Source: Mycolicibacterium tusciae JS617 (GTDB lineage: Bacteria > Actinomycetota > Actinomycetes > Mycobacteriales > Mycobacteriaceae). Taken from it: a stretch of 64,000 nucleotides of DNA. Positions 20,670 through 25,740 of this stretch are shown here, in pieces. Made by a program: the position numbers and the translations under genes. The DNA lies in assembly GCF_000243415.2 (NCBI RefSeq), contig NZ_KI912270.1, forward strand, positions 2,790,001 to 2,854,000, given 5' to 3'. The first letter of the stretch is position 1, and each line of letters starts with the position of its first letter. The notes below the pieces were generated by a model. It had not been told where the DNA came from. It ran no database searches and saw nothing but the letters and a program-made list of their open reading frames with translations.

Positions 20670-20960
20670 ATGCCACAGCCTCAACAGCTTCCTGGCCCCA
20701 ACGCTGATATCTGGGATTGGCAGATCGCCGGCCTATGCCGAGGCGTTGATTCGGCCATGTTCTTTCACCCCGACGGCGAACGCGGCCGGGCCCGCGCGCA
20801 ACGAGAGCTGCGCGCCAAGGAGATGTGCCGGAGCTGCCCAGTGATCGCGCAGTGCCGCACGCACGCGCTCGCGGTCGGTGAGCCCTACGGCATCTGGGGC
20901 GGCCTCTCCGAGGCCGAGCGTGAACTGCTGCTGAAGCGGGGCATCCGCCGCGCCTCGTAG
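20670..20960 (+). CDS. whiB3: WhiB3 redox-sensing transcription regulator
   Basis: The 96 residues contain the WhiB four-cysteine set: one Cys in AGLCRGVD, CRSC (two, spaced CxxC) and one in AQCRTH, which bind a 4Fe-4S cluster. The family GIWGG turn follows, then the basic tail LLLKRGIRR that contacts DNA. Sequence and order match Rv3416. WhiB3 senses NO, oxygen and redox state and controls lipid anabolism and intracellular redox balance, partly by binding the principal sigma factor. Followed by a strong hairpin, so probably monocistronic. Confidence 0.96.
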   Translation: MPQPQQLPGPNADIWDWQIAGLCRGVDSAMFFHPDGERGRARAQRELRAKEMCRSCPVIAQCRTHALAVGEPYGIWGGLSEAERELLLKRGIRRAS

Positions 20961-20983: not shown

Positions 20984-21023
20984 GAGAAGGCCCCACCCCG
21001 GCGTCGGCGGATGGGGCCTTCTC
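20984..21023 (+). terminator. Hairpin terminator after whiB3
   Basis: A perfect 12-bp stem, GAGAAGGCCCCA / TGGGGCCTTCTC, with a 16-base loop starts 24 bases after the whiB3 stop codon. There is no T-run, as is common for mycobacterial terminators. Confidence 0.7.
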
Positions 21024-21110
21024 CACGCGTGGTCGCGGCCGGCGCGGCTGATCTTCGCGACAACACAAGACACGCGACAACACAAGACAATGGACCGCCG
21101 CTGACCCAGA

Positions 21111-21566
21111 ATGAGCTCCGTGGTCAAATCTCTGGACTTTGATGGCAACGTCGCCAACGTCGTCGACTTCGAATCGACGACGGCCAGCACTGCGGTCGCC
21201 GGGTCGGCAGCCACTGCGGCCAGCTCGGCGGTGGCCGGCTCGGCAGCGACGGTGGCGAGCACCGCGGTCGCCGGCTCGGCAGCCACCGTGGCGAGTGCGG
21301 GAGTGGCCGGCTCCGCGGCCACCGTCGCCAGTACCGCCGTGGCCGGATCGATCGCCACCGCCGGAAGCGTCGCCATCGCCGGAAGTATCGTCACCGCAAT
21401 GTCTCTCGCGATCGCGGGCAGCATCGCGTGCGTGGCATGTGCGTTCTGCAAGAAGTGCATCGCGTGCTTGGGTTGCGTCGGCTGCACGAACTGCGTCGGG
21501 TGTGTGGGGTGCTATAACTGCTCAGGCCTGCGGTTCGCCGCGGGGCTGCGCGACGTGCACGTCTGA
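21111..21566 (+). CDS. Alanine-repeat protein with C-terminal cysteine ladder, unknown function
   Basis: The 151 residues fall into three parts. Residues 1-22 are unique (MSSVVKSLDFDGN...). Residues 23-106 are seven tandem copies of a 12-residue unit close to TVASTAVAGSAA, encoded by matching 36-base repeats, becoming more Ile-rich towards the end. Residues 107-137 are eleven cysteines at exactly every third position (CxxCxxC...), with small, hydrophobic or polar residues between. A short tail (SGLRFAAGLRDVHV) ends the protein. There is no signal peptide. The fixed three- and six-residue periods suggest a solenoid with a stacked Cys face, or a metal-binding ladder. I do not recognise a named family. 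The next gene on this strand is an HExxH membrane protein. Confidence 0.75.
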   Translation: MSSVVKSLDFDGNVANVVDFESTTASTAVAGSAATAASSAVAGSAATVASTAVAGSAATVASAGVAGSAATVASTAVAGSIATAGSVAIAGSIVTAMSLAIAGSIACVACAFCKKCIACLGCVGCTNCVGCVGCYNCSGLRFAAGLRDVHV

Positions 21567-25443: not shown

Positions 25444-25740
25444 CTAGTCGTCGGACTTATCGGACTTATCGGACTTATCGTCCTCGTCGGAGTCGTCGTC
25501 CTCGTCGGAGTCGTCGTCCTCGTCGGAGTCGTCGTCCTCGTCGGAGTCGTCGACCTTTGCGGACTTGGTCGACTCGCTGATCGCGTCGGCGTGCTTCGTC
25601 AGGAGCCGCGCCAATTGGCGGGCCTCTTCAGGTGCCAACGAGTCATCGAATAGCCGCTCGCTGTCCTCGGACACTCGCTCGAGGTAGACCTCGTTGTCTT
25701 TCGTGGCGACATTCCATTGGCCGCCCTCCTGTTCCACCAT
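25444..25740 (-). CDS. Small acidic Asp/Ser-repeat protein
   Basis: A 98-residue protein. The first ~65 residues look like a folded domain (QWNVATKDNEVYLERVSED...EEARQLARLLTKHAD). The tail is low complexity: tandem DDSDED units, then KSDKSDKSDD. The DNA shows matching short tandem repeats (about 15 and 9 bases), which could change length by slippage. The charge suggests a cation- or nucleic acid-competing tail. No family recognised. Confidence 0.65.
   Translation of the reverse strand: MVEQEGGQWNVATKDNEVYLERVSEDSERLFDDSLAPEEARQLARLLTKHADAISESTKSAKVDDSDEDDDSDEDDDSDEDDDSDEDDKSDKSDKSDD

What the first reader, a model, noticed from the sequence alone, without database searches (positions are those of the whole stretch)
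21111..21566. Cysteine-ladder protein: 11 Cys at exact 3-residue spacing after seven 12-residue alanine repeats
Seven near-identical 12-residue units (TVASTAVAGSAA type) are followed by 11 cysteines at residues 107, 110, 113 ... 137 without a break. The underlying DNA repeats are 36 bases. Three- and six-residue periods fit a solenoid with a Cys-lined face: a possible metal, Fe-S, disulfide or acylation platform. It has no signal peptide and I know of no named family. Its length could vary by repeat slippage.
Basis: partly seen in the sequence, partly recalled or inferred. Interest (0 to 1): 0.82.

Follow-up and report, generated by a model that had tools for sequence, protein, structure and literature searches.

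The report
Overlooked cysteine-lined repeat protein family
A small bacterial gene that gene finders tend to miss makes a repeat protein that probably coils into a thin rod whose last turns are lined with cysteine; it is conserved across many actinobacteria, but its job is not known.

The parts
21111..21566 (+). Cys-ladder ORF, 151 aa, ATG start, TGA stop
   Evidence: relatives
21111..21185 (+). residues 1-25, N-terminal segment, not conserved between subfamilies (some whiB-site kin share M-x-x-V-V-K)
21186..21422 (+). residues 26-104, body of 12-residue units (xA[VT]AGS hexapeptides); no charged residue in residues 23-106; core column V/S/T/S
21387..21443 (+). residues 93-111, pre-ladder stretch, the most hydrophobic 19-residue window (Kyte-Doolittle 2.14)
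21429..21521 (+). residues 107-137, eleven C-x-x triplets; the columns of 113-137 are Cys in 39 of 39 sequences aligned at the last ladder Cys
21522..21563 (+). residues 138-151, conserved tail S-G-L-R-x-A-x-G-L-R-D-V-H-x; core column continues as L/A/L/V
20670..20960 (+). upstream neighbour, WhiB-family regulator (the name whiB3 is recalled, from the neighbouring sigD and guaB genes); not part of the module
   Evidence: PF02467, E 1.3e-24
20987..21020 (+). inverted repeat AAGGCCCCA/TGGGGCCTT between whiB and the ORF, terminator-like, read by eye

Best explanation
The ORF belongs to an undescribed family of small repeat proteins under protein-level selection (shown) and very likely translated (start/stop overlaps and fusions). 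Its chain most likely winds into a narrow beta-solenoid of 12 residues per coil in which every third residue points inward: V, S, T, S in the body, then only Cys for about the last three coils, then a conserved GLR tail that closes the end (inferred). If the body's register continues into the ladder, Cys 107/113, 119/125 and 131/137 sit at strand centres, where beetle antifreeze proteins form their cross-coil disulfides, while 110, 116, 122, 128 and 134 sit at the turns (extrapolated). I think the Cys core is a chemical lock on the end of an uncharged, Ala-faced rod that packs with copies of itself: oxidised or metal-loaded it is rigid, reduced or empty it frays. In many loci the rod is probably made together with whatever gene lies upstream, or as a tail on an enzyme, so it may tether or assemble that product (speculative).
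Confidence: 0.37

Rival explanations
1. Soft-metal or Fe-S store: the Cys-lined end is a reduced thiol tube that binds Cu(I), Zn or an Fe-S cluster, working like a metallothionein on a rod.
For: Turn-type as well as strand-type Cys are conserved; no export signal seen; one copy lies behind a Cu/Zn superoxide dismutase-like gene (L041, Sod_Cu E 1.7e-25), others behind an Fe-S subunit (L071) or an FAD enzyme (L066).
Against: No metal-regulated partner recurs; neighbours change between loci. Metal-site geometry cannot be read from the models.
Confidence: 0.3
2. Membrane anchor: the hydrophobic stretch before the ladder is a transmembrane helix and the Cys triplets are a cytosolic tail.
For: Residues 93-111 reach Kyte-Doolittle 2.14 (the usual threshold of 1.6 is recalled); family maxima 1.54-2.69, median 2.01; 0 charged residues in residues 23-106.
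Against: Neither AF2 run shows a helix; the stretch keeps the triplet frame; windows starting at residues 25-73 score only 1.0-1.3.
Confidence: 0.12
3. Thiazole/oxazole-modified bacteriocin precursor, like heterocycloanthracin, whose Cys-x-x triplets become thiazoles.
For: Haft 2009 (PMC2674419, part 1 of 2 read) describes Cys-x-x repeats that vary by triplets in a precursor encoded far from its enzymes. YcaO above cut-off was seen in 5 of 23 ladder-positive and 0 of 14 ladder-negative same-genus genomes.
Against: No YcaO above the family cut-off in the window's own genome (one hit of 21.8 bits, cut-off 25.7) and none in 18 of 23 ladder-positive same-genus genomes; no conserved N-terminal leader; no NCBIfam match.
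Confidence: 0.03
4. Cys-sensing leader peptide whose translation controls the next gene, as proposed for mycobacterial poly-Cys uORFs (recalled).
For: Many Cys codons in a small ORF that a codon-usage gene finder misses.
Against: The nearest called downstream gene is co-directional in only 19 of 39 loci; Cys are spaced, not consecutive; fusions to enzymes do not fit a leader.
Confidence: 0.03

Closest known systems
Beetle antifreeze proteins (Tenebrio molitor, 1EZG; Dorcus, PMC8038014)
   Different: No T-x-T in the window protein; here all core positions of the last coils are Cys, after a long Cys-free body; bacterial, no export signal seen; no sequence match
Heterocycloanthracin family, thiazole-type bacteriocin precursors (PMC2674419)
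   Same: Run of Cys-x-x triplets that vary in number
   Different: No YcaO above cut-off in the own genome, no conserved leader, long repeat body, conserved C-terminal tail
Fungal ice-nucleation proteins with disulfide caps (PMC13288671)
   Same: Beta-solenoid with conserved Cys near its ends
   Different: Repeats homologous to the 16-residue ones of bacterial ice nucleators and a few Cys at irregular spacing; no sequence relation was tested
Left-handed beta-helix hexapeptide proteins (PF00132)
   Different: 18-residue coil (recalled); here 12-residue units; no Pfam match for the window protein
Collagen-like repeats (PF01391)
   Same: Small residue every third position; 4 of 46 aligned members match at E up to 0.1 and P0040 passes the cut-off
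   Different: Ala nearly as often as Gly at that position; the window protein does not match

Membership tests
Beetle antifreeze protein | 12-residue repeat | tested here: met
   Self-identity 0.77 at a shift of 12; 12-residue indels
Beetle antifreeze protein | Core residue every third position | tested here: met
   Phase counts in 85 sequences; sequence pattern only, burial not shown
Beetle antifreeze protein | TxT/TCT ice-binding motif | tested here: not met
   No T-x-T in the 151 residues
Beetle antifreeze protein | Right-handed 12-residue beta-helix | tested here: inconclusive
Heterocycloanthracin / thiazole-type bacteriocin | Cys-x-x repeats | tested here: met
Heterocycloanthracin / thiazole-type bacteriocin | YcaO cyclodehydratase partner in the genome | tested here: not met
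   own genome: only a 21.8-bit hit, cut-off 25.7; 5 of 23 ladder-positive same-genus genomes have one above it. Other cyclodehydratase types were not searched
Heterocycloanthracin / thiazole-type bacteriocin | Match to a curated precursor model | tested here: not met
   0 NCBIfam families up to E 1; I did not check that TIGR03601 is in that release
Left-handed beta-helix hexapeptide repeat (PF00132) | Pfam match | tested here: not met
   0 families for the window protein
Left-handed beta-helix hexapeptide repeat (PF00132) | 18-residue coil | tested here: inconclusive
   Self-identity 0.40 at 18 against 0.77 at 12; body gaps 7 of length 18 against 151 of length 12; AF2 run 2 leans the other way
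Collagen-like repeat (PF01391) | Gly at every third position | tested here: not met
   Gly 736 and Ala 602 of 1622 in the family; in the window body mostly Ala
Metallothionein | Binds metal through Cys | not testable with these tools
   needs purified protein

The most novel reading that the evidence does not exclude
A portable protein module: a rod with a Cys-only core at its end, kept by selection but tied to no fixed pathway, that is repeatedly placed behind or fused onto unrelated (often redox) enzymes across Actinomycetota and Dormibacterota, where it assembles the enzyme or responds to thiol/metal state through its Cys tube. It has stayed unseen because gene finders tend to skip it.
Probability: 0.2. 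Interest if true: 0.85.

Novelty: new variant of a known kind. Interest (0 to 1): 0.62.

Why it matters
It is a conserved, very likely translated protein family in common actinobacteria that is thinly represented in protein databases (best database hit to the window protein: 64% identity over 95% of it). If the core model is right, it would be a natural beta-solenoid with coils lined by nothing but Cys, useful for thiol/metal chemistry and for solenoid design, and it raises the question why one module travels behind so many different genes.

Tried and rejected
Pfam and NCBIfam for the whole protein: nothing up to E 1. PDB by sequence: nothing for the single protein; the profile gave six hits up to E 10, best 0.14. 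Plasmid and phage records: no match (the BLAST low-complexity filter is on). Conserved operon partner: rejected, since neighbours differ between groups of loci. Read-through from the upstream gene: the upstream stop is in the ladder's frame in 9 of the 31 loci where my script found such a gene, about the third expected by chance, so no case. Antisense ORF as the real gene: disfavoured, since differences concentrate on the third codon position of the ladder frame; the antisense frame was not tested on its own. Foldseek against PDB gave no match with E up to 0.001. A paper search for the strings CVGCVGC, CIGCVGC, GCVGCYNC, VAGSVATAGS, CXXCXXCXXC, NCSGLRN found two papers, one relevant; the listings showed no description of this family, within the open-licence library only and by title and abstract start. 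P0004 (hexapeptide acetyltransferase joined to the ladder) sits on an 816-base contig and was not used as a fusion. Several database relatives (P0016, P0017, P0046, P0051, P0053) look frame-shifted in the ladder by eye; I left them as they are.

Full report
OBSERVATION. The ORF at 21111-21566 (+) has 151 codons with an ATG start. The eleven Cys lie at 107-137 with ten gaps of exactly three. None of 100,000 shuffles of the last 46 residues gave such a ladder, and the next longest independent C-x-x run in all six frames of the window is four. The DNA repeats with a period of 36 or 72 bases at 21175-21361. By eye five of the seven 12-residue units are near-identical; the last two diverge.

IT IS A REAL GENE FAMILY. 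The first protein search gave 19 relatives, the profile search 76 with E up to 0.01, and a second profile 58 with E up to 1e-6; in each only about 7,990 candidates were scored. Whole genomes: 26 of 61 relatives had a match, of which 23 of the 37 same-genus genomes, the own one included (tally); the three matches outside the genus were weak, and two of their loci have no ladder of five or more. In 396 genomes of the phylum 13 matched at E up to 1e-5, five of them weak and without a ladder; that search scored few candidates per genome. In 81 genomes of another actinobacterial order 17 matched, and in two of the 17 loci my script found no ladder. The genus label Mycobacterium for the window is an inference: one unnamed same-genus contig has the length of a named Mycobacterium sp. 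ENV421 contig and the same ladder protein.

SELECTION. In 39 distinct sequences, the window's included, aligned at the last ladder Cys, nine Cys columns are invariant, with 2286 synonymous TGC/TGT differences and no replacement among all pairs. Differences in 53 close pairs fall 231, 158 and 839 on codon positions 1, 2 and 3. Pairwise dN/dS has a median of 0.22 in 429 usable of 741 pairs and 0.07-0.11 to the eight nearest relatives of the window; to one Dormibacterota copy it is 0.66. These pairs are not independent.

GENE POSITION. A small codon-usage gene finder of my own called the ladder ORF in only 2 of 39 loci, and the window protein itself is not among the hits, so the family is probably under-annotated. 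The nearest called upstream gene is co-directional in 28 of 36 loci (3 more had none), the downstream one in 19 of 39 (the finder misses short genes such as whiB, and loci are related). In 10 of 56 loci a possible start codon overlaps an upstream stop (eight ATGA, one GTGA, one TGATG), in 12 more the gap to the first possible start is 0-30 bases, in 9 it is longer or no start follows, and in 25 the script found no co-directional coding ORF ending there, which includes misses such as whiB and some ABC-transporter copies. The overlapped genes are SDRs at L067 and L075 (about 80-82% identical to the Pfam-checked SDR of L052), an Fe-S subunit of the succinate dehydrogenase kind (L071), a 2-oxoacid dehydrogenase acyltransferase at five related loci (one, L097, checked), SMC (L102) and an ORF without a Pfam match (L035). 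In the window the gene stands 150 bases behind a WhiB gene with a terminator-like inverted repeat between (read by eye). In-frame fusions: CYTH domain in P0031, P0034 and P0035 (the first below Pfam's cut-off) and OMP decarboxylase in P0042, with P0043 of the same kind by precomputed domain; all are on contigs of 2.5-8.9 kb. A tree of the 48 ladder and tail residues groups the whiB-site copies with two SDR-site copies, while other SDR-site copies fall elsewhere (no support values were examined), which hints at relocation.

DESIGN. Counting from the ladder in 85 sequences, not made non-redundant, every third residue of the 60-residue body stretch is S, V or T in 1441 of 1615 cases; the residue before it is G or A in 1338 of 1622; in the tail the same column is L, A or V in 281 of 340. 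Body length changes mostly in steps of 12: among pairs of 68-99.5% identity, body gaps of 12 occur 151 times, of 24 25 times, of 36 11 times, against 30 of length 6, 7 of length 18, 37 of length 1 and 24 of length 7; in the ladder and tail gaps of 3 dominate (100), largely one shared difference counted many times. A published description of the beetle antifreeze repeat gives inward positions 2, 5, 8 and 11 of 12 (PMC8038014, passages). The two patterns agree.

MECHANISM. If the frame is right, about three last coils have four Cys each in the core. Strand-type Cys (107/113, 119/125, 131/137) could pair as in beetle proteins; turn-type Cys (110, 116, 122, 128, 134) could stack along the edges. 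Disulfide end caps on beta-solenoids are described for fungal ice nucleators (PMC13288671, part 1 of 4 read). I favour a thiol-locked cap, with metal binding as a close rival, because the turn-type Cys are equally conserved. What the rod does for the cell is not shown.

RIVALS. A thiazole-type precursor lacks its YcaO enzyme here and in 18 of 23 ladder-positive same-genus genomes, although the 5 genomes with YcaO are all ladder-positive. A Cys-sensing leader does not fit the gene order. A membrane anchor is possible because of the hydrophobic stretch at 93-111.

Noticed in passing
21056-21089: Two perfect copies of a 17-base direct repeat (CGCGACAACACAAGACA) just upstream of the ORF.
   Followed up: no
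21090-21104: Tiny ORF ATG-GAC-CGC-CGC-TGA a few bases before the start codon; a similar four-codon ORF overlaps the start in ABC-transporter-site copies such as L059 (by eye).
   Followed up: no
25469-25556: Acidic SDEDD-type protein repeat (98-aa ORF, minus strand) from 9/18/36-base DNA repeats.
   Followed up: no
L041, L043, L054 (upstream); L031, L035 (downstream): Several copies lie next to a Cu/Zn superoxide dismutase-like gene; the Pfam scan covered L041 only, the others by sequence reading.
   Followed up: partly
9-10 bases before the start in L038, L040, L045, L059-L063, L066, L068, L070: A TGA(C/G)AT motif recurs at copies in different sites (by eye), possibly a leaderless promoter; in the ABC-transporter-site copies it coincides with that gene's stop codon.
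   Followed up: partly
P0004: A hexapeptide acetyltransferase running straight into the ladder on an 816-base contig; real fusion or assembly chimera.
   Followed up: no
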